The notes: generated from the letters alone by a model not told the origin. DNA of 64,000 nt from an uncultured Chthonomonas sp. (GCA_903919615.1 CAIXIX010000456.1:1-64000); one strand, 5' to 3'; numbered from the stretch's first letter, positions 25,733-62,840 are shown. Translations and numbers: made by a program.

Positions 25733-25800
25733 CAACCGGTAGGCGCGTATGTCCGTCCCAAAACCAAAAACCCAAAACCCTAAAACCTGACACCCTTCTT
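25733..25800 (-). repeat. G/T-rich heptad tract plus GGGACGGACATACGCGCCTACCGGT tail after mgtC
   Basis: Minus strand: AGAAGGGTGTCAGGTTTTAGGGTTTTGGGTTTTTGGTTTTGGGACGGACATACGCGCCTACCGGT; tail shared with 56601-56627. Confidence 0.85.
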
Positions 25801-25811
25801 CCCCGACTACC

Positions 25812-26510
25812 TCAAAGACTTCTTCCTACTGGCGCATCGACGCGCCAATTCGCGCTGCCGAGATCCGCCTTCTGGGCTAAACAGGAGATCATCTGCTCAA
25901 TACGCTCATCGCAGCGTGTTGAAGCTGTCAGGCAGGCTCGAATGCTCACCAGTCCGTCCTTCAGGTTGTCGCTGTTTACGGAATGCAATGACATCTCAGC
26001 TTCCCTGGCATGTTGTATGAGCAGCATTCGAAGCTTGGCGGCATCTCCAGGCACGCAGTTCATATCCAAGTGGTAGTTTGTTTCGCGGTGCTTGAGATCA
26101 GGATGGAACTTATATGCCAGGGGTCGGAAAACAATGTTTATAATTAGAATTCCAAGCGCAGTTATGAGTGCAAACATCGGATGACCGATGCCGGATATCG
26201 TGCCCACAGCCGACGAGCACCAGACCGTTGCGGCGGTGTTCAATCCCCGTACATTGATGCCCTCTTTCAGAATTACGCCCGCGCCGAGAAAGCCTATCCC
26301 AGAGACGATCTGACCGGCAATACGCGCAGGGCCAGTCGGATCATCCGGCACGAGAAAACCCACCATAACATACGTAGCGGCGCCGGCAGCAACGAGGGCA
26401 TTGGTTCTCGTCCCTGCCATGTTCTGCCGCCACTGGCGTTCGAAGCCAATGAGCCCGCCAAGCAGGAGCGCCATGCAGAGTCGCATGGTAAAAGTCTGTA
26501 AGGTCAACAT
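25812..26510 (-). CDS. MgtC/SapB family protein
   Basis: LLGGLIGFERQWRQNMAGTRTNALVAAGAATYVM, GFLGAGVILKEGINVRGLNTAATVWCSSAVG. Start set at MLTLQTFT (26510); ORF track extends to 26603. Confidence 0.9.
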   Translation of the reverse strand: MLTLQTFTMRLCMALLLGGLIGFERQWRQNMAGTRTNALVAAGAATYVMVGFLVPDDPTGPARIAGQIVSGIGFLGAGVILKEGINVRGLNTAATVWCSSAVGTISGIGHPMFALITALGILIINIVFRPLAYKFHPDLKHRETNYHLDMNCVPGDAAKLRMLLIQHAREAEMSLHSVNSDNLKDGLVSIRACLTASTRCDERIEQMISCLAQKADLGSANWRVDAPVGRSL

Positions 26511-26690
26511 AGCGCGTTTCCTTTTCGAGAACCAGGCAGGACGCCTGTCGTCCCGGAGCTCACCTAACCCCGCTTGCCAAACGCAAAAGAGGCCGGAGGC
26601 CACAGCTCTTTCATGCTCGTATGCATGAAACGGCAGCGGCTTCCAGCCTCCTAATCAACAGGTGCGCGCTCTAAACGCGCGGCACCATTT
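26511..26690 (-). promoter_or_regulatory. Candidate structured 5' leader of mgtC
   Basis: GGAGGC/GCCTCC arms (26595-26600, 26646-26651) enclosing an 8-bp perfect stem (26609-26616/26623-26630), upstream hairpin 26661-26686, and a GGCCTCCGGCCTCTTTT alternative hairpin/U-tract. Confidence 0.45.
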
Positions 26691-26827
26691 GGTTGGGCAA
26701 CAGGAACAGATTATTTCGGAATACGGAAAATCGAAATCTATCGCCTTACGCTGCGGTACTGCGCCAATCCCGGTTTCGCGTACATATTACAAATGCTGGG
26801 TTAGTATATAACTGGAAGTGTAGGTTG

Positions 26828-27130
26828 TCAAGATTTCGCTACTGTAGTCGCAACCGTCAACGTCACCCGGACTTTACTGCCTTCATCCAGCTTCTCCGCC
26901 TTGCGGACGCTGGCCCTGATTGGCACGATGTAACGGCCGTCCTTAGGGAATAGCGAAGTCGTCCATTCGGTTTTTCGGATACGTGCGCGTACAGGAATCA
27001 TTCCCCAGCCATAGGTTACAGAACGCGATACCGCTTCCAGGTCCAGACACAGTTCAGGTGGAACCGTCACAAAATACCAGGGCGCCGGGCCCTGCCAGAA
27101 CCAGATATCGCCTTCAAATTCAATGGTCAT
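26828..27130 (-). CDS. DUF1905 domain-containing protein
   Basis: FEGDIWFWQGPAPWYFVTVPPELC...GWGMIPVRARIRKTEWTTSLFPKDGRYIVPIRASVRKAE. Confidence 0.85.
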   Translation of the reverse strand: MTIEFEGDIWFWQGPAPWYFVTVPPELCLDLEAVSRSVTYGWGMIPVRARIRKTEWTTSLFPKDGRYIVPIRASVRKAEKLDEGSKVRVTLTVATTVAKS

Positions 27131-27410
27131 AGCCGTTTATGATACACCTCATCAAACGATTTTCAGAGCATTCAGCGCCGATGGTGCGAATGAAAATAGC
27201 CTCCTACTGCTGTACCCTGGCTTCTCGTCGTGCTCTTGCCGCTCACCTACAACATTCTGTGGGCGCTGAAGCGAACACGGGATCCAAGCAATGGATTATT
27301 GCTCTTGTTGCCACTAAAACGCATTTCTTTGCGGCTTTGCGAAGTTACGTGAGTCTCTTCTCTGGTTGCGGCCAGGTGCTCCGCGCTTTTTAGCCATGAG
27401 AGCTCTGATT

Positions 27411-27980
27411 TCAGATGCCGAACCACCAGATCGGCACGCGCGTTTGCATCAGGTTACACAGTGCGCCGAGATGCTCTTGTCTGCGCATCACGGCGTCGTG
27501 CTCCATCTGGAACTCGCGCAAGGCAGCATTTTGTGCGATTGGGTGTTGAAGCGCCCCGGGCTGAGTGGGGTGCTGAACGAGCGCTATTTTTTGATTGTCT
27601 TCATGGGTTCTCTGAGGTTCGTGGTCCAGCCACCTCTGAAGTTTAGCCAGTTCGTGCTCGAACACCCAACAGCCGCCGCACTTATCACAGGCGTACATCT
27701 GAACGTGCGAGGTGTACTCGTAGTAGTAGGGCGACAAGTGAACGCTGCAGTTAGGGCACTCCAGAGTCACCGATTGCGGAAGTGTGCTTGCGCCATGTTT
27801 GGTTTCTTGAACAACATGATCGTCGAGGGAAGCGATGCCAAGGGGATCGGTGGTGATTACCTTACGCAGTTCTTCCGGGTCGAACCACAGTCCGGAACAC
27901 GTGGGGCAGACGTCCAGGTCTACGCCATGAAAGCTCTCCTGGTTCATTTCGTGTCGACAGCCGGGACAGTGACGTGCCAT
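27411..27980 (-). CDS. TFIIB-type zinc-ribbon protein
   Basis: MARHCPGCRHEMNQESFHGVDLDVCPTCSGLWFDPEEL; further CxxC pairs (CPNC, CDKC). Start set at MARHCPGC (27980). Confidence 0.8.
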   Translation of the reverse strand: MARHCPGCRHEMNQESFHGVDLDVCPTCSGLWFDPEELRKVITTDPLGIASLDDHVVQETKHGASTLPQSVTLECPNCSVHLSPYYYEYTSHVQMYACDKCGGCWVFEHELAKLQRWLDHEPQRTHEDNQKIALVQHPTQPGALQHPIAQNAALREFQMEHDAVMRRQEHLGALCNLMQTRVPIWWFGI

Positions 27981-28099
27981 TAGTCGCTCCTTCAGAATTA
28001 GAGATACGTTGCAATGAACTATTCCGCAATGTTCTGATGATTCCTGTGCACGATGTATTGTGGCAATTGATGCTCTCAAAGCAGGGTTAATACCGAATC

Positions 28100-31000
28100 G
28101 TGTTAAACAGACCGAGCATGGAGAATTACTTATCAAAAGCCGTGTTCGTGTTTACCTGCCTGTCGATGCTCGGGGCGGGTATCGCCCGGGAAGCCGCTGC
28201 GAAACCACTGCAGGCCGCCGCGCTGCCCGCACCGCTGGTGGAACTGGATGCGCGCGACTCGTCGGCGGGAACAGATGTCTGGATGAACCGGGGCACCCTG
28301 GGTGCTTTCAACAGAATTGGGAAGCCGAAGGCGATCACGATTGCCGGCGCGCAAGCGGTTCAGTTTGACGGCCGGTCTGATGCCTACCTGGGGCCGCGCA
28401 CAAACTCTGACCTTGAGGGCCGCCATCCGCGAACGATCGAGGTGTGGGTCTACAACCCAGCCGTCGATTCCGGCGAAGAAACGATGGTGTCGTGGGGCAA
28501 TCGCGGCGGTGCTGCCGGATCGATGCTCGCGTTCGGCTATGGGGCGAGCGGCGGTTATGGCGCCGCGACCCACTGGGCGGACGACCTTGGCTGGGATGGA
28601 GTGCCCCAGCCCGGTCAGTGGCATCACCTGGTTTACACTTATAATGGCGTAACTGCTAAGATCTACCAGGACGCGGCCGAAAAGAATAGTCGTGACACGA
28701 CATTGAACACCGAGCCGACCACCATCAGCCTTGCGGCTGAAGCCGGCGCCGATGGCAAGCTGCAATTCACGAATGAGTATGACCACACGCAGCAGGCTGG
28801 CTCGCTCAGCCTCGCCACGGTCCGCATCTTCGGCACGGCTCTAACTCAGAAGCAGATTGAGGCCGAGTTCAACCGAGATGCCGCACGATTTGCCGCAAAG
28901 AAACTTCCGTTCCCCGGCGCACTCCTGGACGACGGCTTCAACACAGTATCCGCAGGCGGACTAAGGCTTTCGTTGGTAAGGGCGACACAGTCGCCCGCAA
29001 GCCTGGTGCCAACGGGCGACACCTTCGATTTTCTGCCCTCAGACAGTCTGAAGCGCCGCATGAGCGACCGCTGCGTACACCTCGGAGATGTCACCATCAG
29101 GGTGCGAACACCCCACGGCGATTGGATGAACCTCAACTCGTCGACGCACCGCATGCGGTTAGCGCCGATCAAGCTTGCGGGTGCGCTTGCAGCGTGTGAT
29201 CTGACGCCATCTCTCGGTAAGGCCAGCCCTTTGCAGGTAATTCGAGAGTGGCGGAAAGAGGGCAATGAGCTTGTGCTTCGCTACCGGCTGCGCAACAGAT
29301 CCAACACCTTTATTGAGGTTGGCGCCTTCGGCGCAGCAATGGCCTTTAACAACCTCCTGAGCGGCCGCCGCATCGAAGAGGCGTATGCAAAGTGCTCCTT
29401 CGCAGACCCCGCGATCAACGGACCGGCTGGATATCTGCAGGTGACGCGGCTCAAAGGGGTCGGTTCTGCGCTGCTGGTTTTGCCCGAGCGCGGGACGTCC
29501 TTCGAGGCATACAGGCAGTTAAAAGAGGACCCGACTCCGCGCGACGTTACCTTCGAGGGCTTTTATGAATGGATGACAAACACTGCGGCATATGCAGGTG
29601 GCGAGTGGAAAGGCGTAAACCCGTGGTGTTCTCCTTCGTCGTTTACGCTTCGTCCCGGAGAAACTGCAATTCGTGGGTTCCGATTTGTTCTGGCGCCGAA
29701 CATTCGCAACATAGAAACGACTCTGCTGGCGCATAAACAGCCTGTGGCTGTTGGTATACCCGGTTACCAGGTCGCGACCGATGCCCCTGCTCGATTGTTT
29801 CTGCACGTTGGATCCGGCATCAAGTCGGATGTGAGGCTCAAGATAGAGCCATCTGGCGCACTTTCTGCCACGAAAAGCAGCGTTACACCGCATGGATGGA
29901 TCGGGTTCACCATTACCGGAAAGCAGCCTGGACGATGCCGCGTTACGGCAATCTATGCGGATGGGATGCGGCAGGAGATCTCGTACAACGTAATCAGGCC
30001 CGAGCGGGATCTGGTTGCCAGACTGGGGCGATTTCATTCTGAGAAGCAATGGTTCACGGATGAGAGTGACCCGTTTGGTCGTGCTTACTCGTTTATGCCT
30101 GTTGATCGCGATACCGGAAAGATGGTACTGCAGCATTCGCACACCTGGATGTCTGGCCTGAGCGATGAGATGGGCGCCGGTCCTTCTGTTGCCATGGCGA
30201 TGAAGAACCTTGAACAGCCCGATGCGGCTGAGATCGAGAAACTCGAGAAGTACGTAGATACAGCGCTATGGGGGCGGCTGCAGTATCCGGATTACGGGGT
30301 GCGAGCCAGCCTTTTCTATTACCAACCGAACCTGTTGCCTCCCGGCTACTACACGATTCGAGGCGGATGGGACAAGGCCCGCACCGAAACAACCTGGCGC
30401 GCCTTCAACTACCCACACGTTGCGGCGGTGTATTGGGCTCTGTACAGGTTAGCTCGAGACCATCAGGGCCTTGTGAAGGCTCACTCATGGCGATGGTACC
30501 TAATTCAAGCTGCTGAAACCGGCATCGCCATGTACTCCAAGAGCGGCGGCGAGGGCGGTCTTGGGCAGTTTGGTTTGATGGTCGGAAGCGTCTTCCCAGA
30601 GATCCTGGAGGATCTAAAGCGTGAGAACCTCCGGAACGAGACAGTCCGATTTGCCTCGATAATGCGCGAGCGCTCAAACGGCTGGCGAGCGAAACAGTAC
30701 CCTTTCGGCAGTGAGATGCCCTGGGACTCCACCGGACAGGAAGAGATCTACTCCTGGTGCCGTTACTTCGGCTACACCGAAAAGGCCGATGTAACCCTGA
30801 ATGCCATCCTTGGGTATATGCCGACGGTGCCCAACTGGGCCTATAATGGGGCGGCAAGACGTTATTTCGATGCACCCGTAAATGGGACGCGATGGCCGGA
30901 GATAGGGAGAATGACCAACCACTACGGGTCCACACTCAACGCAATACCGGTGATCGCCGCCATTCAGGACAATCCCGAGGATCTCTATCTGATGCGTGTC

Positions 31001-31522
31001 GGCTATGCGGGCATGGACCAGATTATGTCCAACATCGATAAAAACGGGCATGGCTCCTACGGATTTGATGCCAACCCGGCGATATTGCAGTTCGACCCGT
31101 ATACTGCGGATTTTGGAGTGGCTTTCTACGGCTATGCCAGATGTGCGGGATCGTACGCCTTCAAGAGCCCCGAATTCGGTTGGCTTGGGTTCGGCGCGGA
31201 GGTGACAGCAAAAGCAGGCAGCGTTACGATCCAACCACATGACGGATTGCGAAAACGGGTATGGATCGCTCCGGCAAAGCTGTTGATCGTGCTGCATGCG
31301 GGCTCTGTTGCGAAAGTGGTCTACTCAACAAGCAAGGAAGAGGTACAGCTGACGCTGGAGCCAGCGTCCGACGGCACCGATTTAGCGCGTGTGCGGCTGC
31401 CCTCCAACTGGATGTGCACTAGGCCAGGAACTATGGACGCGCAATCGGCAGAGCGGGGCGATTATGTGGTGAAGTTGGGCGTGGCGCCAGTTACAGTGAG
31501 GATGATTCAGATTCGGCGATGA
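28100..31522 (+). CDS. Secreted LamG-like/DUF5695-type putative carbohydrate-active protein
   Basis: N-terminal concanavalin-like segment (RTIEVWVYNPAVDSGEETMVSWGNRGG...GQWHHLVYTYNG) and large aromatic-rich C-terminal region; family assignment from recall. Confidence 0.75.
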   Translation: MLNRPSMENYLSKAVFVFTCLSMLGAGIAREAAAKPLQAAALPAPLVELDARDSSAGTDVWMNRGTLGAFNRIGKPKAITIAGAQAVQFDGRSDAYLGPRTNSDLEGRHPRTIEVWVYNPAVDSGEETMVSWGNRGGAAGSMLAFGYGASGGYGAATHWADDLGWDGVPQPGQWHHLVYTYNGVTAKIYQDAAEKNSRDTTLNTEPTTISLAAEAGADGKLQFTNEYDHTQQAGSLSLATVRIFGTALTQKQIEAEFNRDAARFAAKKLPFPGALLDDGFNTVSAGGLRLSLVRATQSPASLVPTGDTFDFLPSDSLKRRMSDRCVHLGDVTIRVRTPHGDWMNLNSSTHRMRLAPIKLAGALAACDLTPSLGKASPLQVIREWRKEGNELVLRYRLRNRSNTFIEVGAFGAAMAFNNLLSGRRIEEAYAKCSFADPAINGPAGYLQVTRLKGVGSALLVLPERGTSFEAYRQLKEDPTPRDVTFEGFYEWMTNTAAYAGGEWKGVNPWCSPSSFTLRPGETAIRGFRFVLAPNIRNIETTLLAHKQPVAVGIPGYQVATDAPARLFLHVGSGIKSDVRLKIEPSGALSATKSSVTPHGWIGFTITGKQPGRCRVTAIYADGMRQEISYNVIRPERDLVARLGRFHSEKQWFTDESDPFGRAYSFMPVDRDTGKMVLQHSHTWMSGLSDEMGAGPSVAMAMKNLEQPDAAEIEKLEKYVDTALWGRLQYPDYGVRASLFYYQPNLLPPGYYTIRGGWDKARTETTWRAFNYPHVAAVYWALYRLARDHQGLVKAHSWRWYLIQAAETGIAMYSKSGGEGGLGQFGLMVGSVFPEILEDLKRENLRNETVRFASIMRERSNGWRAKQYPFGSEMPWDSTGQEEIYSWCRYFGYTEKADVTLNAILGYMPTVPNWAYNGAARRYFDAPVNGTRWPEIGRMTNHYGSTLNAIPVIAAIQDNPEDLYLMRVGYAGMDQIMSNIDKNGHGSYGFDANPAILQFDPYTADFGVAFYGYARCAGSYAFKSPEFGWLGFGAEVTAKAGSVTIQPHDGLRKRVWIAPAKLLIVLHAGSVAKVVYSTSKEEVQLTLEPASDGTDLARVRLPSNWMCTRPGTMDAQSAERGDYVVKLGVAPVTVRMIQIRR

Positions 31523-31611
31523 GTTAGTTGGGTAGTAAGTTAGTATGGGAGTGAGTTAGTGAGTTTGGGACTGTCTGGTGGTACGACGTGTAAGACAATT
31601 ACGACCAGCAA
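31521..31611 (+). repeat. G/T-rich octad tract plus TACGAC tail after a stop codon
   Basis: GAGTTAGTTGGGTAGTAAGTTAGTATGGGAGTGAGTTAGTGAGTTTGGG then GTACGACGTGTAAGACAATTACGACCAGCAA, similar to 1124-1154. Confidence 0.75.
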
Positions 31612-31782
31612 TGTAATCGAAACGGCAAAGTAATTAACAGAGGGTATGCTGCCGCAAACGTCTAAACTGCCAATAATTCGCTCCTGCCATAGCCCAAATT
31701 GTTCACGAGCATCAAAATACAACGCGCAGCAAATCGCGCGACTGCCATGCGGGCTGTGTGATCGCAGGAGAAGGACAAGATT

Positions 31783-33750
31783 GTGAACTTCATATCATCC
31801 TTTGCCTTTACACTGGCCGGGCTGGCTGCTGGCCTTGCGACCGCGGTTCATGCTGCTGAACCGCCCACTCCACGTTCGCCGCATAAATGGACGCTCTCCA
31901 CAGACGACACAGCGCTTGCGATCGAGGCAGACCAGCATACAATTCGGATCACTGCGTTGCGCAGCCGAACCGCCCGCTGGAACTGGATTAAGACGCCTGC
32001 TTCCGTACCGCTCCCAGCTTTGGAGATCGAGGGAAAGCGTAAGGATCTGAATTGGGACTTTCAGGGCGCCGAACAAGACAGGACGCATGGTGTAAAAATC
32101 ACGCTCCGCTACACTTGCCAGGACCCTGCTTTAACTCTGGTATCGACCTGGGAGGCGAGACCCGGACCCGGACCCGTCGAGAACCGAGTGAGCATTGTAA
32201 ACGGATCTGGAAAGGCAGTAACCTTTAGCGCTGCCGATGCGGCCGCCCTTGCAATGACCTCCGATTATCCGGTTACGCTGCACAGAGCCGACAAGACGAA
32301 TGTCGGCGAAGGTAAGGTTCACGAGGATCTGCTCGCACCGAGCGCGCATATCCGCACCGGCTCCGGCGAGATACCGTTAGCTCTGCTGCAGGCAGGACCA
32401 CGGCATGGCGTCTACTTTGGGTTCGAGTGGGAGCTTGGCGGCTTTGATGTTGCGACCCAACAGGATCCGAAGCAGATCGGTGTCCGTGTTCAGCCCATAA
32501 CGGAGACAGTGGTTCGATCCAGTGGCGAGACCTTCGAAGTACCTGCCGTTTACTACGGCGCCTATACAGGCGACCTTGATGATGGCGCAAACCGCTTCAA
32601 GCGCTGGTTCTGGAACTACAAGATCACACGATCGCTGCACGATAACTTCGGTGAGCCCTGGGTCGAGGTCTGCATGCAGGAGATTGGCGGCACCGGCGCG
32701 ACTAGCATTACGGGTGCGACCCCGCAGAGCGTTTACGACCGGCTGGCATCAACAGGCGCCGAATGCGTTAAGATGGATTTCTGGGATGGATCCGGCAAGT
32801 GCTGGTACACAGATCGCGATTGGATGTACCATCCGGAAAACTGGCTAAACGGGTTCGACTTCGCCAAGAAGGCGCACGCTGCAGGTTTAAAGGCATCGCT
32901 CTACATGGGCGGAACTTACAAAGACGGCGACCTCACAACCACCGCAGATCGCGATGCGGAGTTGAATGCCGTGCAGTACCGATACGATCAGGGCTGGTTC
33001 GATATCTGGCGCACGGACCTCTATACCGCCCCGAAAGAGCCAATACCTCAGACCTACCAGGGAGTAACAAACTTTCTGCACATTCAGGATGCTTTGATTG
33101 GCAGCAGACCGGGATACCGATATGAGAACTGCTGCAATGGCGGCAAGTACAAAGGGTTCGCGATCTGTAGGCGCATGACGTTCTGCACCATGAACGACGT
33201 GGATAGCACCGCATGGAAAACGAGGACCACCTACTACTCGAATACATTCGGCATCAACCCTGTTCAGCTCAAATCCGACCTTGGCCCGGCGGAAACCGCG
33301 TATGACCTGCGCACAGACATGCTCGGATCCATCCTCACCTGGGCTGCGGATAACCCTGTGTACAGACAGCATATCGCTCTATACAAGTCCCGACAGAGAC
33401 CGATCCTGCGCGGCTGCAACGTATATCACATTCTGCCCATGGCGGATGGCGCCAACTGGGATGGGATGGAGTTTTACAATTCGGACATCGACCAGGGGTC
33501 TGTATTCCTCTTCAAACCATCATCACACGCTACCGATGGTGACACAAAGACAATCAAGCTCAAAGGTCTGACCCCCAGGGCGAAGTATAAACTCACCTTT
33601 CAGGATAGGACGAGTTTAAATTGCGTTAAATCCGGATTGGAGCTGATGCAGAACGGGATAACGGTTTCGGGCATGACGGGAGAAAATGCATCCGAGATTA
33701 TTTGGATTTCGGGGCCGCGGGGGAGGATTGGTAATGGGGTAATGCGGTAA
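31783..33750 (+). CDS. Secreted glycoside hydrolase, alpha-galactosidase-like
   Basis: Signal peptide; GEPWVEVCMQEIGG...VKMDFWDGSGKCW...HAAGLKASLYMGGTY. Confidence 0.72.
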   Translation: MNFISSFAFTLAGLAAGLATAVHAAEPPTPRSPHKWTLSTDDTALAIEADQHTIRITALRSRTARWNWIKTPASVPLPALEIEGKRKDLNWDFQGAEQDRTHGVKITLRYTCQDPALTLVSTWEARPGPGPVENRVSIVNGSGKAVTFSAADAAALAMTSDYPVTLHRADKTNVGEGKVHEDLLAPSAHIRTGSGEIPLALLQAGPRHGVYFGFEWELGGFDVATQQDPKQIGVRVQPITETVVRSSGETFEVPAVYYGAYTGDLDDGANRFKRWFWNYKITRSLHDNFGEPWVEVCMQEIGGTGATSITGATPQSVYDRLASTGAECVKMDFWDGSGKCWYTDRDWMYHPENWLNGFDFAKKAHAAGLKASLYMGGTYKDGDLTTTADRDAELNAVQYRYDQGWFDIWRTDLYTAPKEPIPQTYQGVTNFLHIQDALIGSRPGYRYENCCNGGKYKGFAICRRMTFCTMNDVDSTAWKTRTTYYSNTFGINPVQLKSDLGPAETAYDLRTDMLGSILTWAADNPVYRQHIALYKSRQRPILRGCNVYHILPMADGANWDGMEFYNSDIDQGSVFLFKPSSHATDGDTKTIKLKGLTPRAKYKLTFQDRTSLNCVKSGLELMQNGITVSGMTGENASEIIWISGPRGRIGNGVMR

Positions 33751-33854
33751 ATGGGTAATTTGGCTCCTGCCTGATGGTGGCGAGGTACGAGGACGTATAC
33801 GACGGATATTAGGCGCCGGAGATCTACAGGCTTTCTATCCGACTTCTCTGTCCT

Positions 33855-35132: not shown

Positions 35133-35307
35133 ACGTTGGCTCCGAGATATTGAGTGATAACAATATTCGATTTGTGTTGGGTGGAATCATTGTTCGGGGT
35201 GTTAGGTTGATTCGATACGTGCGTGGGTAGTCCCAGTGAATAATCCGCCAAATCGCGGATTATCGGGGGCAGGTCCATCGCATATAATACTGCTGTTGAC
35301 GAGACGA

Positions 35308-35456
35308 CATGTCTATTGTAGACATGGACAATTTAATATTGGCATGATCAGGCGGCTCCAGGTGAGAGGAGCGCAGCCGGGCCTTCTAGCTCTTTGGTGA
35401 GGCAACAGGATGAATAGCCCTGTGGGACTGTAATGTATCGGTCCTACAGGGCTATT
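35308..35456 (+). promoter_or_regulatory. Structured leader upstream of P-type ATPase
   Basis: CATGTCTA-TTG-TAGACATG (35308-35326); AATAGCCCTGTgGGAC (35413-35428) pairs with GTCCtACAGGGCTATT (35441-35456), ending TTTT. Confidence 0.5.
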
Positions 35457-35508
35457 TTAATGCGTAGTGAGTTACCTTTCCTTTCTGTGTGAGGGCTGAA
35501 ACAATCGT

Positions 35509-37458
35509 ATGAACACATCGGATGTGACAGTTGAAGAGCATGCGCCGGGCTGCACGGCTGGCGATCGGTCCCGTGCAGGCGTGGCTTTTCACAGCAAGGC
35601 TCAGGTCGCCATTGCCGCACTTGCGGTTGTTGGGATACTGGCGCATCTGGTTCTGCGATACTCCCTCCATATGACTTCTGCCATGACGCAGGGGGGCACG
35701 GTCGGCCAGGATGAAACACCTCTGGTGGTCATTCTGGTCGGCGGAGGCCTTCCCTTAGTCTGGGCACTCTGTGTTCGGCTGTGGCGACGCGAGTTCGGCT
35801 CCGACCTACTCGCCGGCATCTCAATTGTCACCTCCGTTTTCCTTCATCAGTACCTTGCAGGCTCGCTGGTTGTGCTCATGCTTTCCGGTGGTGAGGCGCT
35901 TGAGGAGTATGCAACGCGCAGCGCCTCCTCTGTGCTGCATGCTCTCGCGCGCAGAATGCCGAGCGTCGCGCTCCGCGTCGAGCAAAATCACACCGTTGAA
36001 GTGCCGTTGGCCAAAATTAAAGTTGGCGATAAGGTCGTCGTCCCCCCGCATGCGCTTTGCCCCGTTGACGGAACGGTACTGGAGGGGCACGGCACGATGG
36101 ATGAGTCGTATCTCACTGGCGAGCCGTATACCGTTTCGAAGGCGCCAGGCACAGCAGTGCTCTCCGGCGCGGTAAATGGGGAGTCGCTGCTTACCGTTCT
36201 GTGCGATCGGCCTGCGAGCGACTCACGCTACGCACGCATCATGAAAGTTATGCAGGAGTCTGAGCAGCAGCGGCCGCAGATGCGGCGGCTCGCGGATCAG
36301 CTTGGAGCATGGTATACGCCGATAGCCGTTGGTATTGCCGTTTGTGCATGGGCGATATCCGGCAGTTCGATGCGCTTTCTCTCCGTGCTGGTTATTGCCA
36401 CCCCGTGCCCATTGCTGATTGCCATCCCAATCGCCATAATTGGCTCGATTTCGCTTGCCGCAAGACACGGGATTATCATCAAAGACCCCTCCGTTCTGGA
36501 AACGATCGGAAGGTGTCGCGTTGCAATTTTTGATAAGACCGGTACGCTGACGTATGGTCGACCCGTTCTTACCGAGGTAACACTCGCTGCGGATACATCC
36601 TGCACGAGAGAGAATCTCCTCGCGCTGGTTGCGAGCGCGGAACGCTACTCCAAGCATCCTCTCGCCCTGGCCATTCTGGAGGCTGCGAATCTGGCGCATC
36701 TTGCGCTGCACGATGCAGTTGAAGTGAAGGAGGAGCCAGGGATAGGTTTAATCGCTACCGTGCAGCAGCGTGAGCTACGAATTGGCGGACGAACGCTGAT
36801 CGATCAGCATTATCCAGACCAAAGGGAAAAACTGCCCGCCGCAGCGGAGGGGATGGAGTGTGTTGTAGTTGTGGACGGTATGGTTACGGCATGCTTTCGG
36901 TTCCGAGATGAGCCGCGACAGGACGGAGTTCATTTCATTGGACATCTATCGCCACGCCATGCCATCGAGAGGATACTGCTGCTCTCGGGCGATCGGGAAT
37001 CGGAAGTTCGCTACCTCGCGGAGCGGGTTGGCATCACCGAGGTGCTCTCTGGCCAGAGCCCGGAGCAGAAACTTGAAACGGTGCGACGAGAGACTGCAAA
37101 AGCCTGCAGCCTGTTTCTAGGGGACGGTATTAATGATGCCCCTGCCCTCACTGCAGCCTCTGTGGGGATTGCGTTTGGCAACAATAGCGATATCACCGGC
37201 GAGGCTGCAGGCGCGGTGATTATGGATAGCTCCCTGGAGCGCGTGGACATCCTGTTTCATATCGGCAGCAGAATGCGGACGATTGCGCTACAGAGCGCGC
37301 TAGGCGGCATGGCGCTTAGCCTGGCTGGGATGGCGTTCGCGGCAGGCGGACACCTCACGCCGGTAATGGGAGCCGTGCTGCAAGAGGTGATCGATGTGGT
37401 TGCCGTGGTAAATGCGCTTAGGGCGGCGCTGCCGCCGAAGACGCTTTCGGATTATTAA
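35509..37458 (+). CDS. Heavy-metal translocating P-type ATPase
   Basis: [35 protein letters not shown] transmembrane motif. Confidence 0.94.
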
Positions 37459-37522
37459 CAGATGGGGTAAGTGGGTAATCCCTTACCGCTTGAATCCCTC
37501 TGAACTCGGGCCCAGTGAACCC

Positions 37523-37547
37523 GGTTTTGGGGTTTTGGACGGACATG
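37523..37547 (+). repeat. Telomere-like GGTTTTGGGGTTTTGGACGGACATG element
   Basis: Shares the G/T tract and GGACGGACATG with 25733-25800 and 56574-56670. Confidence 0.7.
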
Positions 37548-37715
37548 TCTCCGGCCCGATGAAGGTATAAATGCAACCGAGAGTGTCGTTTTTCGGAGCA
37601 GCGTAGGGGTGCTGCTTGCCGCACCCGCTTACAGTTTGCACGCCGTAATTTGTAAGCAGAATCACTTATCGATTGCCTGATTTGTTCGTCGTTTTCGGCC
37701 CGCGAGCCCCTTACG

Positions 37716-37739
37716 GGCGCAGCAAGCGGCGCCACTACC
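37716..37739 (-). repeat. Dispersed copy of the 24-bp core of the 61-bp repeat
   Basis: Reverse complement is GGTAGTGGCGCCGCTTGCTGCGCC, identical to the unit junction in the 18473-18699 array. Confidence 0.9.
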
Positions 37740-37830
37740 ATTCGCAAATAATGCAGGTTAGATCTAGTGCAGGAAGTTTACGGGGGAATTGGCGGTTGTA
37801 ATGTTTAAATTGACCGCGTGTAATTAGCGA

Positions 37831-45050: not shown

Positions 45051-45094
45051 GGTGAGTGGGTCAGTACGTTAGTGAGATAGTGACTTAGTGAGCA
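45051..45094 (+). repeat. Octad tract (TTAGTGA-type) in an intercistronic gap
   Basis: GTTAGTGA-GATAGTGA-CTTAGTGA with 8-bp period, directly after the stop at 45046. Confidence 0.75.
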
Positions 45095-50372: not shown

Positions 50373-50400
50373 GGTAATTAAGTCACCTCTCTAGTGGATT

Positions 50401-53414: not shown

Positions 53415-53589
53415 ACTCGTCTGGAACGAATGTTGTCTGATGAGCTCTCTATCTCAGCCCTCTCTGGCTACCTGCAATGGATCAAAATGGAATACTGCAA
53501 AGGGATACAATATCTGTGGCCGCGGTTCCTTCATTTAGCGAAAGAAAGACGGGGAAGAGGGTAATGAGGTAATCGAAACGGGATGCGTG

Positions 53590-53621
53590 TGCGGCGGCAG
53601 AATGGTAGATCTGCCGCCGCA
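53590..53621. repeat. 12-bp perfect stem hairpin
   Basis: TGCGGCGGCAGA-(8 nt)-TCTGCCGCCGCA. Confidence 0.8.
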
Positions 53622-53645
53622 AGAAACCTAAAGACGAAACAGTGT

Positions 53646-55253: not shown

Positions 55254-55477
55254 AGTACTGCCCTCCTGCGCTCCGCGTTGGGCGCGGAATGTCACATGTG
55301 TGCGTATCGCCGTATGGACGGTCCGGACCATTTCCGGAGTCCAGCGGTTACGACCTTTATTGATACACAATATGTGCCAAAGGTGCATCTCATAACAGGA
55401 AACTGCTTCTTCGCGGAGGAAATTGCGCCGTATAGAAGTCTTGCGAATGAAGCACGCAGGAGCTAATCCCAGGCTTA

Positions 55478-56569
55478 ATGAATTGCTGGCCAATGCCTTT
55501 GGGGGTGCGTCGTCGTCTAAGTACAACGGAGACTAGTGATCAGTTACGTGACCTAGTCGGGCTGGCGGAAACTATGGATAAACGCGAGATATACAAGCAG
55601 GCGCGGCGTATTTATCGGCTGGTTCGCCGGGGTCAGGCATCGCAGGCGGAGCAGGAGCTCCGCCGCCTCGGCGACGCACGCATCCCTGTTGCTGAAGCGA
55701 TCGTTTCCGACGATTTCAGGATGGAGCCTACAGGTCGTGTAATGAAGTGGCTGGCGCTGTTGGCGGAAGCGCCAATTCTGTGGTTTGTATGGCGATACGT
55801 CGGTCCTCCGTTGGTTGATGGGCCGATTAAATACAAGATTTTGTACGTTGTCGCGTTCGTTTTTGGTGCCTTGATTGCCAACATCGGGCTGATAACTGCC
55901 CTAAGCGCAATCTGGGCAGCGTTGGAGTCGCTATCGACAGGTGGTTTAGCCAACAGTCATCTAGCAGCCCGCGACGTTGCAGCAACATCCATTGCAAGCG
56001 CAGCGACGAAAAGAACAGATCTCCTTGGGTCGCTGCTCTCCGCCATGTACCGTTATACATTACCTAACGAACCGGTTAGGGACGAGTTGGACCTAGGTCT
56101 AATCAAAGCGCTCAGAGCGGCAGATATCAATACTTTTCACTCGCTAAAAGGCACTCAGCAAGCTGCGCTCAGGTTTCGTTTGAATTTAGTGCGGACACTT
56201 GCAGGTGACTTACACGATGATAAACAGCTGCAACAATGGTCTGCATTGAGCAGAGAAATCAGCCCACAAATAGGCAAACAGATTCTTGGCGTGTATGAGG
56301 TCTTTGCCGATCGGGGCGCAATACCCTACGTAACGAGGCTTGCCGAGCTACCGGGCGATAGCCTGCCTGACGATGACTGGAAATCGGTGAAAGAGGCAGC
56401 CATTCGATGTTTGCCCGTTCTTCGCGCGAATGTAGAGGCTTTGGAGGGAAACCAGAATCTGCTGCGTGGAGCGGCGGCGCCTGCCGCGAAGGCTGAAGAG
56501 ATGCTGAGGCCGGCATCAGTGGGGCATCAGGGTAATGACGACAAAGATGAGTTGTTACGACCGGAATAG
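55478..56569 (+). CDS. Hypothetical membrane protein
   Basis: TM segments (IKYKILYVVAFVFGALIANIGLITALSAIW); start may be ATG 55574. Confidence 0.65.
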   Translation: MNCWPMPLGVRRRLSTTETSDQLRDLVGLAETMDKREIYKQARRIYRLVRRGQASQAEQELRRLGDARIPVAEAIVSDDFRMEPTGRVMKWLALLAEAPILWFVWRYVGPPLVDGPIKYKILYVVAFVFGALIANIGLITALSAIWAALESLSTGGLANSHLAARDVAATSIASAATKRTDLLGSLLSAMYRYTLPNEPVRDELDLGLIKALRAADINTFHSLKGTQQAALRFRLNLVRTLAGDLHDDKQLQQWSALSREISPQIGKQILGVYEVFADRGAIPYVTRLAELPGDSLPDDDWKSVKEAAIRCLPVLRANVEALEGNQNLLRGAAAPAAKAEEMLRPASVGHQGNDDKDELLRPE

Positions 56570-56573
56570 AAGC

Positions 56574-56670
56574 AGGTTGGTTGGTCTTTGGATTTTGCTT
56601 TTGGGACGGACATGCGCGCCTGCCGGTAGCTAGGTCCGTCCCAATACCTAACACCCAAAACCTAAGACCT
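56574..56670. repeat. Two facing G/T-rich tracts with GGGACGGAC inverted repeat between convergent genes
   Basis: TTGGGACGGAC (56601-56611) / GTCCGTCCCAA (56634-56644), flanked by G/T-rich tracts on the sense strand of each gene. Confidence 0.88.
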
Positions 56671-56673
56671 CTT

Positions 56674-59427
56674 CTATTGCTTCATATCCGCCCAGTTTGG
56701 GCCGGATTTGGCTTCGGCCGTTAAAGGCACGCTGAGTGGATAGACGTTCTCCATTATTCCGCGAATGAATGGAGTGACGGCATCCACGGCATCAACATCT
56801 ACTTCAAACAGAAGTTCATCATGTACCTGGAGGAGCATGCGGCAGACTCCAGACCAGTTTTTCTGGACTTCGTAGAAAACATCAATCATGGCAAGCTTCA
56901 TGATGTCGGCTGCGGTGCCCTGGATGGGCATGTTTACCGCAGCGCGCTCGGCAAATTGCCGCATGGCATGATTAGGGCTGTCGAGCTCGGGAAGATAACG
57001 GCGCCTGCCGAGAAGCGTAGAGACGTACCGGTTAGCATGCGCTGAAGCAGTGGTCTCCTTGATGTACTGCTGAACCCCAGGCAAGCGGTTAAAGTACTCC
57101 TTGATCCAGGCGCCCGCAGTCTTGTTATCTACTCCGAGAGTGGATGCCAGCGCGAACGCGCTCTGACCGTAGATCACGGCGAAGTTGATCGTCTTCGCCT
57201 GCCTCCGCTGGTCAGAAGTGACCTCAGCCAATGGCACACCGAAGACACGACTCGCTGTTGCAGCGTGAACATCCGCATGCGCATTGAACGCCTCGGTAAG
57301 CGCCGTGTCTGAGGACATATGTGCGAGGATCCTCAGCTCGATCTGGGAGTAGTCGCAGGAGAGCAGTACCTTGCCGGGAGGTGCGATGAAGGCACGTCGG
57401 ATTTCGCGGCCTAATTCCGAACGAATCGGGATGTTTTGCAGGTTCGGATCGGACGAGCTCAGCCTGCCAGTGCTGGCAACCGTCTGGTTAAGCGTCGTGT
57501 GAACTCGGCCTGTCTGCGGGTCCATCAGTTTGACAAGTGCATCGGCATAGGTCGATTTTAGCTTCGATATCTCGCGATAGTCGAGGATTAGGCGCGCAAT
57601 TGGGTACTCAGGAGCCAGCGCTTCAAGAAGGTCTGCGCCGGTCGTAAATCCGGATTTGTTCTTCTTGCCGGTTGGCAGCTGAAGCTTCTCGAAAAGGACA
57701 ACTTGAAGTTGCTTGGGTGAACCGATGTTGAACTCTTCGCCTGCAATACGATAGATTTCCGATGCGAGATTGATCATGTCTCGATTGAGCCGCAAGCTGA
57801 GGGTTGAAAGATAGCTGCGATCGACAAGCAGACCAACCCGTTCCACCTGAGCAAGCACGGTAACGAGAGGAAGCTCGACGCGCGCCATGACATCGGTCAT
57901 GTTCAGTGTATCTAGCTGTTTCTGCATCGCGTCTGCTAGCTTCAATAACAGCGCAGGTTCGGAATCGGCCGAAACATCGCCGGTAGAGCTTAGATACTTC
58001 TCAGCCAGGTCCGATATGGGATACGTTGCCCGCCCCGAATCGAGGAGATACGCTGCGATCATCGTGTCGAAGGCGATGACGGGGCTCAGAAGTTCGTTTG
58101 TGGCGGCAGCGAGCACGTGAAGCGAAGGTTTGGCGTTGTGGCAGATCAACTTTAAGTTGGCTGGATTTAGAAGCGCAAGCAAATCTTCGGCGGCAAGGCT
58201 AAAGCCGCTGTCTTCGCCGAAGAGGCCGCCGGAATCGTCTGAAGGCTGCGCACTGACATCTGCGGCCCACACGGTATCTTTAGTGGCCGCGAATCTGATT
58301 GATTTAAGCTTCAGCGGAGATCCCAGTTCCGTTTCGATCATAAGAGCTGCCAGGCCAACAACGTGGACAGCTTTCATCGCAGCCACGAACTCCGCATGAT
58401 CTGCGATTTTCTTAACCTTAATCGGGCTTTCGGCAGCAGTGTCGACAGCGGCAATGTCGACCGTGTCGACTTCCGGCTCATCAAAGCTGAAGAGCGAACC
58501 CTGGGCCACCACTGTAGGTGAAATGGGAGCAGGAGGCGCCGGAGGGGCGACTGGCTGTGGCAATCGGGACAGAAGCGAGCGGAACTTTAAGCTTTGAAAC
58601 AAGTCTCGAACCTGGTTCCACACTCGATCTGTGGGTGCGTAGGGCTCCACAGGCAGCTCGAAGGGAGCATCGCAGACGATAGTTGCGAGCCGCTTTGACA
58701 GGCGGGCCTGATCCGCATGGGTTTCGAGCGCTAGTCGCGCCTTATTGGGTGTGACTTCAGGCACGTGCTGCAGCAGCGTTTCCATATCGCCGAACTTTTG
58801 CAGCAGCGCAGTTGCAGTCTTTTCGCCGATGCCTGGGACGCCTGGGATGTTATCGGAGGTGTCGCCGACCAGGCCTTTCCAATCTGGCAGGCGACTCGGC
58901 GGCACGCCATAGCGTTCCTCCACAGCCGCTGCATTATAGTCCTTCACCTCTGTAACTCCGCGCTGACAAATCTCAACGCGAACACTTTCCTTCACTAGCT
59001 GCAGCTGATCGGAGTCTCCAGTGACGATAACCACGTCAAAACCTTGAGCGCTGCCACGTACCGAGAGGGTGCCGATGAGATCATCGGCCTCATAGCCCGG
59101 CAATTCTGCCGACTGTATACCGAAGGCTTCGACCAGTTTTCTCGCTCCAGGCATCTGCAGCACCAGGTTTGGGTCTACTTCTGGGCGGTGTGCCTTATAG
59201 GCTTCGTACTCCTCTTTGCGGTGCGTTCGCTGAGGCCCATCCCAGCAGATGACAATCGAATTTGGCTTTTGATTGCTGAGGATCGAGAGCAGCATGTTGC
59301 TGAAGCCAAAGAGCGCTCCGGTCGGGCTGCCATCTGGCGCGGTGAGGTAAGGATTGGAGAAGTGGGCCCGGAATAGCAGACTGTACGCATCCACGAGTAC
59401 TAGCTTCTTGCTGTCGTCAGAAGGCAT
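56674..59427 (-). CDS. polA: DNA polymerase I
   Basis: 5' nuclease motifs, LLSCDYSQIELRILAHMS, RRQAKTINFAVIYGQSAF, LLQVHDELLFEV. Confidence 0.97.
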   Translation of the reverse strand: MPSDDSKKLVLVDAYSLLFRAHFSNPYLTAPDGSPTGALFGFSNMLLSILSNQKPNSIVICWDGPQRTHRKEEYEAYKAHRPEVDPNLVLQMPGARKLVEAFGIQSAELPGYEADDLIGTLSVRGSAQGFDVVIVTGDSDQLQLVKESVRVEICQRGVTEVKDYNAAAVEERYGVPPSRLPDWKGLVGDTSDNIPGVPGIGEKTATALLQKFGDMETLLQHVPEVTPNKARLALETHADQARLSKRLATIVCDAPFELPVEPYAPTDRVWNQVRDLFQSLKFRSLLSRLPQPVAPPAPPAPISPTVVAQGSLFSFDEPEVDTVDIAAVDTAAESPIKVKKIADHAEFVAAMKAVHVVGLAALMIETELGSPLKLKSIRFAATKDTVWAADVSAQPSDDSGGLFGEDSGFSLAAEDLLALLNPANLKLICHNAKPSLHVLAAATNELLSPVIAFDTMIAAYLLDSGRATYPISDLAEKYLSSTGDVSADSEPALLLKLADAMQKQLDTLNMTDVMARVELPLVTVLAQVERVGLLVDRSYLSTLSLRLNRDMINLASEIYRIAGEEFNIGSPKQLQVVLFEKLQLPTGKKNKSGFTTGADLLEALAPEYPIARLILDYREISKLKSTYADALVKLMDPQTGRVHTTLNQTVASTGRLSSSDPNLQNIPIRSELGREIRRAFIAPPGKVLLSCDYSQIELRILAHMSSDTALTEAFNAHADVHAATASRVFGVPLAEVTSDQRRQAKTINFAVIYGQSAFALASTLGVDNKTAGAWIKEYFNRLPGVQQYIKETTASAHANRYVSTLLGRRRYLPELDSPNHAMRQFAERAAVNMPIQGTAADIMKLAMIDVFYEVQKNWSGVCRMLLQVHDELLFEVDVDAVDAVTPFIRGIMENVYPLSVPLTAEAKSGPNWADMKQ

Positions 59428-59475
59428 TCCGGTTCACTCCCTCGCCACACTGGGCATCTAATAGATCTGCTGATA

Positions 59476-60138
59476 TTATGACTGCTTCCACTCCGTCTCA
59501 ATGCCTCGCGTCACTGCTTCTGGGTCGATATGCTGGCCCTTCATTATTTTATGCCAGGCCCACCAGCCCTGAAACGCCATTACCAGAAACAGGAAGTAGA
59601 GGGTGGCAAGCGCCGTAAGGTGCTGCACCGGGAAGAGATAAAACGCATAGACGATATCCACAACGATCCAGAGAATCCAGTTCTCGATCCGCTTCTTTGT
59701 CTGAAGATACTGCGCTGCGATGCTGATTACGGTGGTAGAGGCATCACACCAGGGCTGTTTGACGTCGAGCTTATGATGCGCTTCTAGATAGCCCCAGATA
59801 ACGCAAACAACAGCAGTACCGAGCGCCCATGAGAGCCGATGTCTGTTGGAGAGGCCGGTTACGGGCAGATCGTCGTTACGGGTTGGGCCGCATCGCAGCC
59901 ACACCCACCAGCCATAGATAGAGATGGGCAGATAGTAGAGGATCTGCAACAGGGCATTGGAGGGATCGAGCGCTTTCCAGAAGATATAGCCAAATAACGT
60001 GACCGATACAATATTGGTTGGCCAGGTGCCTATTTTGTTGCGAACGGCATAGATAACGGATGCGATGCCAGTAATGTAGGCGACCATCCCAATCCAGCCG
60101 CCAATCTGCTCCCATACAAGTTGGACCAAAGGGTTCAT
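59476..60138 (-). CDS. pnuC: Nicotinamide mononucleotide transporter PnuC
   Basis: WPTNIVSVTLFGYIFWKA, YYLPISIYGWWVW, IENWILWIVVDIVYAFYLF. Confidence 0.93.
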   Translation of the reverse strand: MNPLVQLVWEQIGGWIGMVAYITGIASVIYAVRNKIGTWPTNIVSVTLFGYIFWKALDPSNALLQILYYLPISIYGWWVWLRCGPTRNDDLPVTGLSNRHRLSWALGTAVVCVIWGYLEAHHKLDVKQPWCDASTTVISIAAQYLQTKKRIENWILWIVVDIVYAFYLFPVQHLTALATLYFLFLVMAFQGWWAWHKIMKGQHIDPEAVTRGIETEWKQS

Positions 60139-60148
60139 TAGTCTCCGA

Positions 60149-60172
60149 CCGGCGGCTTTGGATGGCCGCCGG
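60149..60172. repeat. 8-bp GC-rich hairpin between pnuC and gdhA
   Basis: CCGGCGGC-(8 nt)-GCCGCCGG. Confidence 0.6.
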
Positions 60173-60217
60173 CTCGTAGGTTAGTTGTGATGCTGTTGTT
60201 GCCCAACCTCCCTCATA

Positions 60218-61549
60218 TCAAGGGAAGATGCCGCGGATGAGGGCTGCGTCTGCGACGCGCTTGACACCGATCAGGTAGGCTGCCAACCTCATGTCCACCT
60301 TCTTATCCAGTGACATCTGGCGCACATCGCGGTAGGATCGGCGCATGATTGCCTGCATCTTCTCGTTGACTTCAGCCTCGTCCCAGAAGAAGCACTGAAG
60401 GTCCTGCACCCATTCAAAATAGGAGACCACCACTCCGCCAGCATTTGCGAGAACGTCTGGCACAAGGAAGATACCACGCTCACGCAGAATGTGGTCTGCG
60501 GTTGGGGTCGTTGGTCCATTCGCGCCTTCAATCACGATCTTCGCTTTAATGCGGGCGGCATTCTCGGCAGTTATCTGGTTTTCAATTGCCGCCGGAACCA
60601 GAACATCCACATCGAGCTCTAGCAACTCTTTTGCACCAATAGCCTCGCCTATAGGCTGCTCAGACAGCGAGCCATCGCGGTTTGCGTACTGGATCAGTCG
60701 TGGAATATCGAGGCCGTTCTCATCATATCGTCCGCCAAGAGCGTCACTTACTGCGACGACTTTTGCGCCAGCCTCATGGAAAATTCGCGCTGCAACTCCG
60801 CCGACATTACCAAATCCCTGAACGGCGACTCGCAGGCCATCCATCTTTAGCCCAAACTCTTTGATCACTTCAAGCGCGATACAAACAATGCCGCGGCCCG
60901 TCGCGTCGGATCGGCCTTCGGACCCGCCGATTGCGATCGGCTTACCCGTAACAACTGCAGGCGCCGTATGCCCGCGGGCCATCGAGATGGTGTCCATCAC
61001 CCACGCCATAGTCTGCGCATTTGTGCCCATGTCCGGCGCAGGAATATCCGTGTGTTCACCGATCACGATACTTATTTCGGAAGCGTAACGTCGCGTCAAC
61101 CGTTCGAGTTCCAACGGAGTAAGCGCTCTAGGATCGCAAACGACTCCGCCTTTGGCGCCTCCAAACGGGATATTAACGATTGCGCACTTCCATGTCATCC
61201 ACATCGCAAGAGCACGAACCTCATCAAGATCGGTACGTGGGCTATAGCGCAGGCCGCCTTTGCTTGGGCCCCGAGCGATATTATGCTGAACACGGTATCC
61301 CGTGAAGACGCGCGTCGTGCCGTTTTCCATCTTAACCGGGAAGTTGACCGTGAGTTCCCGTTCTGGATGCTTCAGCACTTCATGAATGCCGGGATCCAGG
61401 TTAAGATATTGCGCGGCAATATCAAGCTGCTCAAGTGCGTTCTTATAGGGATTGGAGCTCTCCGGCGGCGCGCCTATTTGTTCCGGCGCATCCGGAAGGG
61501 GCTCCCGGTGTTTGCGATGGACTCCATTCGCATGAACTGAGGTGCTCAT
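60218..61549 (-). CDS. gdhA: Glu/Leu/Phe/Val dehydrogenase (glutamate dehydrogenase)
   Basis: GGLRYSPRTDLDEVRALAMWMTWKCAIVNIPFGGAKGGV, QGFGNVGGVAARIFHE. Confidence 0.95.
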   Translation of the reverse strand: MSTSVHANGVHRKHREPLPDAPEQIGAPPESSNPYKNALEQLDIAAQYLNLDPGIHEVLKHPERELTVNFPVKMENGTTRVFTGYRVQHNIARGPSKGGLRYSPRTDLDEVRALAMWMTWKCAIVNIPFGGAKGGVVCDPRALTPLELERLTRRYASEISIVIGEHTDIPAPDMGTNAQTMAWVMDTISMARGHTAPAVVTGKPIAIGGSEGRSDATGRGIVCIALEVIKEFGLKMDGLRVAVQGFGNVGGVAARIFHEAGAKVVAVSDALGGRYDENGLDIPRLIQYANRDGSLSEQPIGEAIGAKELLELDVDVLVPAAIENQITAENAARIKAKIVIEGANGPTTPTADHILRERGIFLVPDVLANAGGVVVSYFEWVQDLQCFFWDEAEVNEKMQAIMRRSYRDVRQMSLDKKVDMRLAAYLIGVKRVADAALIRGIFP

Positions 61550-61813
61550 AGCCTACGATTCCTCCTCGAACCAATGTTGGGTGGCGAAAGTGATAGAACG
61601 ATGAAGCTTACGCCATGGCGCCTTTGCCATGATGTACCATCCCATCCTCGCGTATCTGAATGTAAAGACGAACGAAGCAATTCGTGAGTTTGCACTGGAC
61701 CAATAGTCCTTGCAGACGGCTGTTGCAGTTTCGAATTGCACGTGCCATACTCACTTTATTACGTCATTATTATGGGACCGATTGTACGGGAAGAATGTAA
61801 CCGGAGGGGCAAA

Positions 61814-62809
61814 TTGATTAAAGATCGTTTGCGTTGGTTTGGAATAACTGTAGCAGTTACAATGAGTCTGGCTATACAGGGCTGCCAGAACAACGACCCC
61901 GTCATTGAGCAGTCGCGATCGCACATCTACGTGGCGGATAGCGGCAACAATCGTATTGTGCGTATCGATGACATGGATGGCAAGGGTTGGAAGACCCTCT
62001 CTGCCAGTAATGCACAGAAATCGACAGCGCTCGATTCACCCAACTTCGCCTATGTAGATCAGGCTGGGCACATCTTTATTGCGGATACAGGCAACTCCCG
62101 CATCGTACGCGTTGACAACATGCAGGGCGACGGCTGGACTACCGTTGGAATATCCGGCGAAAGCAAAGGGCAGTTTCGGTCTCCCGCTGCGGTATTCACT
62201 GACCCCGAGAATCGGATCTATGTAGCTGACAAGGGCAACTACCGAATTACGCGAATGGATGATATGGCGGTTACACACTGGACCGTTCTGGGCGGCAAGG
62301 GTAAAGGCACTGGCCATTTTGGCGCACCATCCGGGCTCTTTGTGGACCCAACGGAGAAGATCTATGTAACGGATGGGATCGACGTCATAAACGACCTATT
62401 CAACAACCGAGTCGTTCAAATGACGGATATCGATTCTAGCGGATGGCATCAACTTGGCGGCGGCGTTGGCGCAGGCAAGGGTCAATTCAACAAACCCACC
62501 GGGATATTCGTCGACCATCTGTTTAGATTCTATATCGCCGACACGTACAACAACCGAATTGTTCGCGTGAATGGCATCGATGGCGGTGGATGGGTAACGC
62601 TTGGAAGCGTCGAGGGTTCAGGGGTCAATCAATTCAACAATCCAACGGCAATCTGGGTGGATTCTAGTGACCACATCTACATTGCCGATACCGGCAACGA
62701 TCGGATTGTTCGGATCGACGATATGACGGGCAAAAACTGGATCTCATTTGGCGCTACAGGCGGCGGGCCAATGCAGCTCCGAAATCCTACTTCTATTTTG
62801 GTGAGATAA
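61814..62809 (+). CDS. NHL-repeat lipoprotein
   Basis: TTG start at 61814 with GGAGGGG SD; lipobox AIQGCQN; repeated IYVADSGNNRIVRIDDMDGKGW units. Confidence 0.82.
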   Translation: MIKDRLRWFGITVAVTMSLAIQGCQNNDPVIEQSRSHIYVADSGNNRIVRIDDMDGKGWKTLSASNAQKSTALDSPNFAYVDQAGHIFIADTGNSRIVRVDNMQGDGWTTVGISGESKGQFRSPAAVFTDPENRIYVADKGNYRITRMDDMAVTHWTVLGGKGKGTGHFGAPSGLFVDPTEKIYVTDGIDVINDLFNNRVVQMTDIDSSGWHQLGGGVGAGKGQFNKPTGIFVDHLFRFYIADTYNNRIVRVNGIDGGGWVTLGSVEGSGVNQFNNPTAIWVDSSDHIYIADTGNDRIVRIDDMTGKNWISFGATGGGPMQLRNPTSILVR

Positions 62810-62812
62810 AGT

Positions 62813-62840
62813 AGGTTTTAGGTTTTGGGTGTTCAGTGTT
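62813..62840 (+). repeat. G/T-rich heptad tract after a stop codon
   Basis: AGGTTTTAGGTTTTGGGTGTTCAGTGTT beginning 4 nt after TAA (62807-62809). Confidence 0.75.

What the first reader, a model, noticed from the sequence alone, without database searches (positions are those of the whole stretch)
25733..62840. Dispersed degenerate G/T-rich 7-8-bp repeat family positioned just after stop codons, in mRNA sense
At least seven tracts sit within 0-50 nt of a stop codon with the G/T-rich strand as the sense strand: after mgtC (25757-25797, -), the 28100 gene (31521-31570), the 31783 gene (33730-33763, overlapping the stop), the P-type ATPase (37463-37479), the transporter (45051-45094), the 55478 gene (56574-56604), polA (56641-56670, -) and the NHL gene (62813-62840). 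Some are octads (GGTAATGG, TTAGTGAG), others telomere-like heptads (GGTTTTAGGTTTTGGG). Several have enough G-runs for a two-tetrad G-quadruplex. The same signal explains repeated peptides in spurious ORFs (RRVCPSQNQKPKT and RRACPSQKQNPKT). Function (3'-end formation, RNA stability, or selfish spread) is inference. One tract (53551-53575) breaks the sense rule.
Basis: partly seen in the sequence, partly recalled or inferred. Interest (0 to 1): 0.75.

Follow-up and report, generated by a model that had tools for sequence, protein, structure and literature searches.

The report
G/T-rich tandem repeats after genes
This bacterial genome carries many short G/T-rich repeats (units of 7 or 8 letters) that start right after the ends of genes and lie in the direction of the gene's message; repeats of this kind are known from Xanthomonas and Nostoc, but these have their own sequence, a shared "cap", and a stricter rule of position.

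Summary
All eight listed tracts exist. A stop-blind scan for G/T tracts of period 7 or 8 in 1.45 Mb of the same genome found 58 noncoding tracts with genes on both sides. Of these, 39 start within 30 nt after a stop codon in mRNA sense, against 3 antisense (p 6e-9). Two lie between divergent genes. Periods 9-11 give almost none. Heptads are GGT[G/T]TTN and octads [A/G]GTAANTN. Many heptad tracts end in a cap, GGACGGACATnnCGCCTnnCGGATG (22 genome hits, 1 reversed control), and in some gaps two capped tracts face each other as a hairpin. The family is lineage-specific: the same-genus genome has no more hits than the control. The kind is already described: Rehm et al. 2015 report G-rich heptads in Xanthomonas and Nostoc within 50 bp after stops on the sense strand (or before starts on the antisense strand), rare between divergent genes and paired head-to-head. 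Function is unknown there and unproven here. I read it as a recently expanded, oriented short-tandem-repeat family kept mainly where G-rich mRNA sense is tolerated, not a general terminator.

The parts
25755..25795 (-). heptad tract (GGTTTTA/G), about 16 nt after the stop of mgtC
25736..25759 (-). cap GGGACGGACATACGCGCCTACCGG following the heptads
31520..31574 (+). octad tract (TTAGTGAG type) starting at the stop of the DUF5695 gene (28118-31522)
33730..33763 (+). octad tract (GGTAATGG) that contains the stop codon of the GH36-C-domain gene (31783-33750)
37463..37479 (+). two octads after the stop of the P-type ATPase gene (35509-37458)
45051..45094 (+). octad tract (TTAGTGAG type) between the DUF6785 gene (stop 45046) and the next gene (45108)
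53551..53575 (+). short octad run, antisense to both neighbouring genes (the exception)
56574..56604 (+). degenerate heptad tract after the stop of the 55505-56569 gene
56640..56671 (-). heptad tract 2 nt after the stop of polA
62809..62841 (+). heptad tract overlapping the TAG stop of the NHL gene
62882..62917 (.). strong stem-loop flanked by A4 and T4 downstream of the NHL tract, terminator-like, between convergent genes; not part of the repeat, but bears on its function

Best explanation
A lineage-specific family of oriented, composite short tandem repeats of the G-rich heptad kind known from Xanthomonas and Nostoc. A full copy reads: stop codon, then optional octads ([A/G]GTAANTN), then heptads (GGTKTTN), then often a cap GGACGGACATnnCGCCTnnCGGATG. 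Shown: the periods, the cap, the placement and strand, and near absence from relatives. Inferred: copies arise by templated copying to new gene ends plus slippage. They persist where they do least harm, just past the stop codon, and are purged from coding and promoter regions. The strand rule reflects either oriented arrival at the gene end or selection on the RNA, in which a G-rich, C-poor 3' stretch is tolerated and the C-rich reverse is not. On this reading they are not the cell's general terminator; any effect on mRNA 3' ends is secondary.
For: Only periods 7 and 8 stand out, and almost wholly in noncoding DNA. 39 of 58 tracts start within 30 nt after a stop in sense, 3 antisense; 2 of 58 lie between divergent genes although these hold 30% of intergenic length (p 8e-7). 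Conservation is uneven by position: GG, T and TT fixed, positions 4 and 7 free. The cap is specific: 22 hits against 1 control, at most 2 in any of 290 phylum mates. Heptads and octads are at control level in the same-genus genome, and no tract follows polA in the family relatives whose 3' end was readable. A tract supplies the stop codon of the 31783 gene. A terminator-like stem-loop lies beyond the NHL tract. The same placement is published for Xanthomonas and Nostoc heptads (PMC4692102).
Against: No pair of nearly identical loci with and without a tract was found, so arrival by insertion is not shown. The strand rule is stronger than simple tolerance predicts. The strand test in co-directional gaps alone is marginal (23 sense, 11 antisense, p 0.06); the strong result rests on distance to the stop. 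Some of the 1.45 Mb was chosen for tract-bearing contigs, which affects density but not strand or position. Gene calls are from my own simple predictor.
Confidence: 0.6

Rival explanations
1. The tract is a functional mRNA 3' signal: the G-rich RNA (a two-tetrad G-quadruplex or a protein site) pauses polymerase or blocks 3' exonucleases just past the stop codon, setting or protecting the 3' end.
For: Sense strand and closeness to the stop; uneven conservation with GG kept; in Xanthomonas RNA-seq, transcripts start or stop more often at G4-capable repeats than at control repeats (PMC4692102).
Against: Few gene ends have a tract; close relatives manage without; a terminator-like stem-loop lies beyond the NHL tract; TTAGTGAG octads have few or no GG runs; in the Xanthomonas data the effect did not depend on which strand was transcribed.
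Confidence: 0.25
2. The cap with its heptads is a small REP-like or MITE-like mobile element (half of a palindrome) moved in trans by a Y1 transposase, and it prefers gene ends.
For: Cap conserved and dispersed; head-to-head copies make palindromes; the genome has two Y1_Tnp genes; the core GCCTn(n)CGGATG is dispersed in other modules too.
Against: Neither Y1 gene is flanked by the cap; no GTAG tetranucleotide is conserved at the element end; octads and several heptad tracts have no cap; no target duplication or empty site seen.
Confidence: 0.2
3. Pure replication slippage in spacers, with no role for strand or stop codon; the pattern only shows where slippage is tolerated.
For: Degenerate units, variable length; heptads are the most abundant long-repeat class in most genomes surveyed (Mrazek 2007 as cited in PMC4679880).
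Against: Strand and distance bias; the same units and cap at unrelated loci need copying, not local slippage alone.
Confidence: 0.1

Closest known systems
G-rich heptameric repeats GGGAATC (Xanthomonas) and GGGGA(C/T)T (Nostoc), Rehm et al. 2015, PMC4692102
   Same: Heptads, intergenic, within 50 bp after stops on the sense strand, rare between divergent genes, head-to-head pairs, dispersed over the genome.
   Different: There the repeats also sit just upstream of starts on the antisense strand, about as often on either strand of co-directional genes in Xanthomonas, with GGG runs and G4 formation shown by CD. Here the unit has GG only, octads are added, a cap follows, and sense-after-stop dominates (39 sense, 3 antisense after stops, 3 antisense before starts).
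Cyanobacterial STRR heptamers and the small dispersed repeats embedded in them (Mazel 1990, Elhai 2008; recalled from general knowledge, not read here)
   Same: Heptad arrays with a conserved short dispersed element next to or within them; one tract here has the GGGGACT unit.
   Different: Other lineage; cap sequence different; the secondary structure reported for the cyanobacterial elements was not tested here.
TAACTGA direct repeats of marine Beggiatoaceae, MacGregor 2015, PMC4679880
   Same: Dispersed intergenic heptad repeats tied to a gene boundary.
   Different: They sit just upstream of start codons and are not G-rich.
REP/BIME elements with RAYT transposases (from general knowledge)
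   Same: Short, intergenic, palindrome-forming in pairs, often after genes.
   Different: No tandem heptads; a RAYT link was not found here.

Membership tests
G-rich heptad repeats (Rehm 2015) | 7-nt tandem unit on a G-rich strand | tested here: met
   octads are an addition
G-rich heptad repeats (Rehm 2015) | mostly noncoding, under-represented between divergent genes | tested here: met
   28 of 33 heptad tracts noncoding; 2 of 58 divergent
G-rich heptad repeats (Rehm 2015) | within 50 bp after stop on sense strand | tested here: met
   39 of 45 within 30 nt
G-rich heptad repeats (Rehm 2015) | within 50 bp upstream of start on antisense strand | tested here: not met
   3 of 58 within 30 nt in this genome; seen in phylum mate G049
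G-rich heptad repeats (Rehm 2015) | consensus GGGNATC or GGGGA(C/T)T with three-G runs | tested here: not met
   consensus GGTKTTN; one GGGGACT array exists
G-rich heptad repeats (Rehm 2015) | G-quadruplex formation in vitro | not testable with these tools
   needs CD spectroscopy
REP element / RAYT system | RAYT gene flanked by the repeat | tested here: not met
   two Y1_Tnp loci, no cap beside them
REP element / RAYT system | imperfect palindrome with a 5' GTAG | tested here: inconclusive
   palindromes mainly in head-to-head copies; GTAG in some only
intrinsic terminator | G+C-rich hairpin followed by a T run | tested here: not met
   tracts are G/T-rich without hairpin unless paired; terminators similarly rare with and without tracts

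The most novel reading that the evidence does not exclude
The tract plus cap is one oriented element, copied as a unit to the position right after stop codons, possibly through an RNA intermediate of the host gene's 3' end, which would explain both the sense rule and the flush start at the stop codon.
Probability: 0.12. Interest if true: 0.75.

Novelty: new variant of a known kind. Interest (0 to 1): 0.45.

Why it matters
It extends a little-studied class of stop-codon-anchored G-rich repeats to another lineage, adds octads and a shared cap, and shows a sharper sense rule than reported before. Because the family is present in this species and at background level in a same-genus genome, comparing strains could show directly how such repeats arrive and why they keep one strand, a question the Xanthomonas and Nostoc work left open.

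Tried and rejected
GGGACGGACATRCGCGCC as a window-only repeat: only two close copies in the genome, but a looser form gave 53 hits against 4 control. Link to Y1 transposases: no cap beside them. Tract as substitute for intrinsic terminators: terminator-like sites are rare everywhere (about 9% of gene ends, 2.6% in shuffles) and not clearly different at tract genes, with few cases. Stop codons in all frames as the purpose: many units (GGTTTTG) hold no stop codon; stop-codon use at tract genes is ordinary. Cap in viral contigs: no exact match. Naming the organism: no 16S gene in the assembly, and the named polA relatives were only distant Paceibacter MAGs; the phylum is not established. The first lag scan's shuffle control was faulty (same number at all lags) and was replaced by a Markov control.

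Full report
Observation. I read the sequence at every listed coordinate and called genes with a simple dicodon predictor. All eight tracts are present, 0-20 nt after or across the stop of the named gene, with the G/T strand as mRNA; the antisense exception at 53551-53575 is also real. The two repeated peptides are the antisense reading of heptads plus a flanking cap, as the sequence shows directly.

Is it more than chance? I sampled 1.37 Mb of the same 7.4-Mb genome and added 28 further loci. Some contigs were taken because they held tract hits, so densities are not estimates, but no contig was chosen by strand or position. A detector that looks only for G/T-rich period repeats found 28 noncoding tracts at period 7 and 22 at period 8; period 9 gave 1 and periods 10 and 11 none. 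Periods 5 and 6 gave 82 and 15, but there the threshold is loose: over coding and noncoding together the Markov control expects 308 against 300 seen at period 5, and 17 against 56 at period 6. Genome-wide, heptad-triplet hits are 161 against 20 for the reversed pattern and octad-triplet hits 206 against 17; these are overlapping hits, not distinct tracts.

Position. Of 58 noncoding tracts with genes on both sides, 39 start within 30 nt after a stop in sense, 3 lie within 30 nt of a stop in antisense, 3 are antisense before starts and 5 sense before starts; 13 are near no boundary, and a few in short gaps count twice. Placing tracts at random in their own gaps gives 17 of 45 close to the stop, at most 27 in 5000 trials, against 39 seen. 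Divergent gaps hold 30% of intergenic length but 2 of 58 tracts (p 8e-7). In co-directional gaps alone the strand count is 23 to 11 (p 0.06), but sense tracts lie a median 10 nt from the stop while antisense ones lie a median 145 nt from the nearest gene on their 5' side. Twelve tracts overlap or touch the stop codon.

Sequence. Register-free alignment gives heptad GGT[G/T]TTN and octad [A/G]GTAANTN; GG and the T positions are kept, positions 4 and 7 of the heptad are free. TTAGTGAG is the same octad in another phase. Of 32 heptad tracts, 24 have a cap-like GGACGGA match nearby at up to two mismatches, a loose criterion. The fuller cap GGACGGACATnnCGCCTnnCGGATG has 22 hits against 1 control. 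Where octads, heptads and cap occur in one gap the usual order is octads, heptads, cap (L032, L041, L190, L193, L204); in L095 the core GCCTGCCGGATG lies between octads and heptads. In some gaps two capped tracts face each other and form a hairpin, as at 56574-56671, L030 and L051. The core GCCTn(n)CGGATG also occurs in other intergenic modules without strand bias, so the cap may be a separate dispersed element that adjoins the tracts.

Relatives. The same-genus genome has 1 heptad hit (control 3) and no octad hits (control 1); the cap has at most 2 hits in any of 290 other phylum genomes. PolA in the family relatives whose 3' end was readable has no tract after it. Some distant phylum mates have heptad families of their own: G034 as inverted pairs and G049 both after stops and before starts. 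Those loci were few and their gene calls weak.

What is known. Rehm et al. 2015 (PMC4692102) describe G-rich heptads in two Xanthomonas genomes and Nostoc with the same placement, the same avoidance of divergent gaps and (in Xanthomonas) the same head-to-head pairs; they found transcripts more often starting or ending at G4-capable repeats than at control repeats, on either strand, and no function. MacGregor 2015 (PMC4679880) describes another heptad, TAACTGA, just before starts. The finding is therefore a new variant of a known kind.

Function. I favour an oriented, recently spread repeat family filtered by tolerance, with the strand rule due to oriented arrival or to selection against C-rich mRNA; this is inference. 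Against a terminator role: a strong stem-loop flanked by A4 and T4 lies 40 nt beyond the NHL tract, relatives lack the tracts, and terminator-like hairpins are similarly rare at gene ends with and without tracts. G-quadruplexes of two tetrads are possible in many tracts by letter pattern but were not tested.

Limits. The phylum could not be named. Gene ends rest on my own predictor. No transcript data exist for this genome here.

Noticed in passing
window 35333-35432 (+): NiCo riboswitch (RF02683, 40 bits) directly upstream of the P-type ATPase gene 35509-37458, suggesting a nickel/cobalt exporter.
   Followed up: no
L087 1575-1661 (-): About eleven copies of GGGGACT, the same unit as reported for Nostoc heptads; GGGAATA/GGGAACA heptads at L119 and GGGAAGT at L099.
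   Followed up: no
for example L077 9312, L089 6517, L015 121, L125 7819: Another mosaic intergenic repeat (CTCATTCTTCGGGCGCAGTAGAGAACACGGGAGAGGGG), often followed by GCCTn(n)CGGATG, the same core as the tract cap, or by GTGAACCCGG.
   Followed up: partly
L284 1366-1869 (-) and L285 1468-1914 (+): Two Y1 (HUH) transposase genes of 149-168 aa; no cap beside them, but an octad tract at L284 1193 follows the stop of a neighbouring ORF in sense.
   Followed up: partly
G034 loci L157, L228-L255: Phylum mate with GGTCTTT heptads arranged as inverted pairs with short spacers between genes.
   Followed up: partly
G032: The reversed octad pattern has 67 hits in this phylum mate against 3 forward, hinting at a different octad family there.
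   Followed up: no
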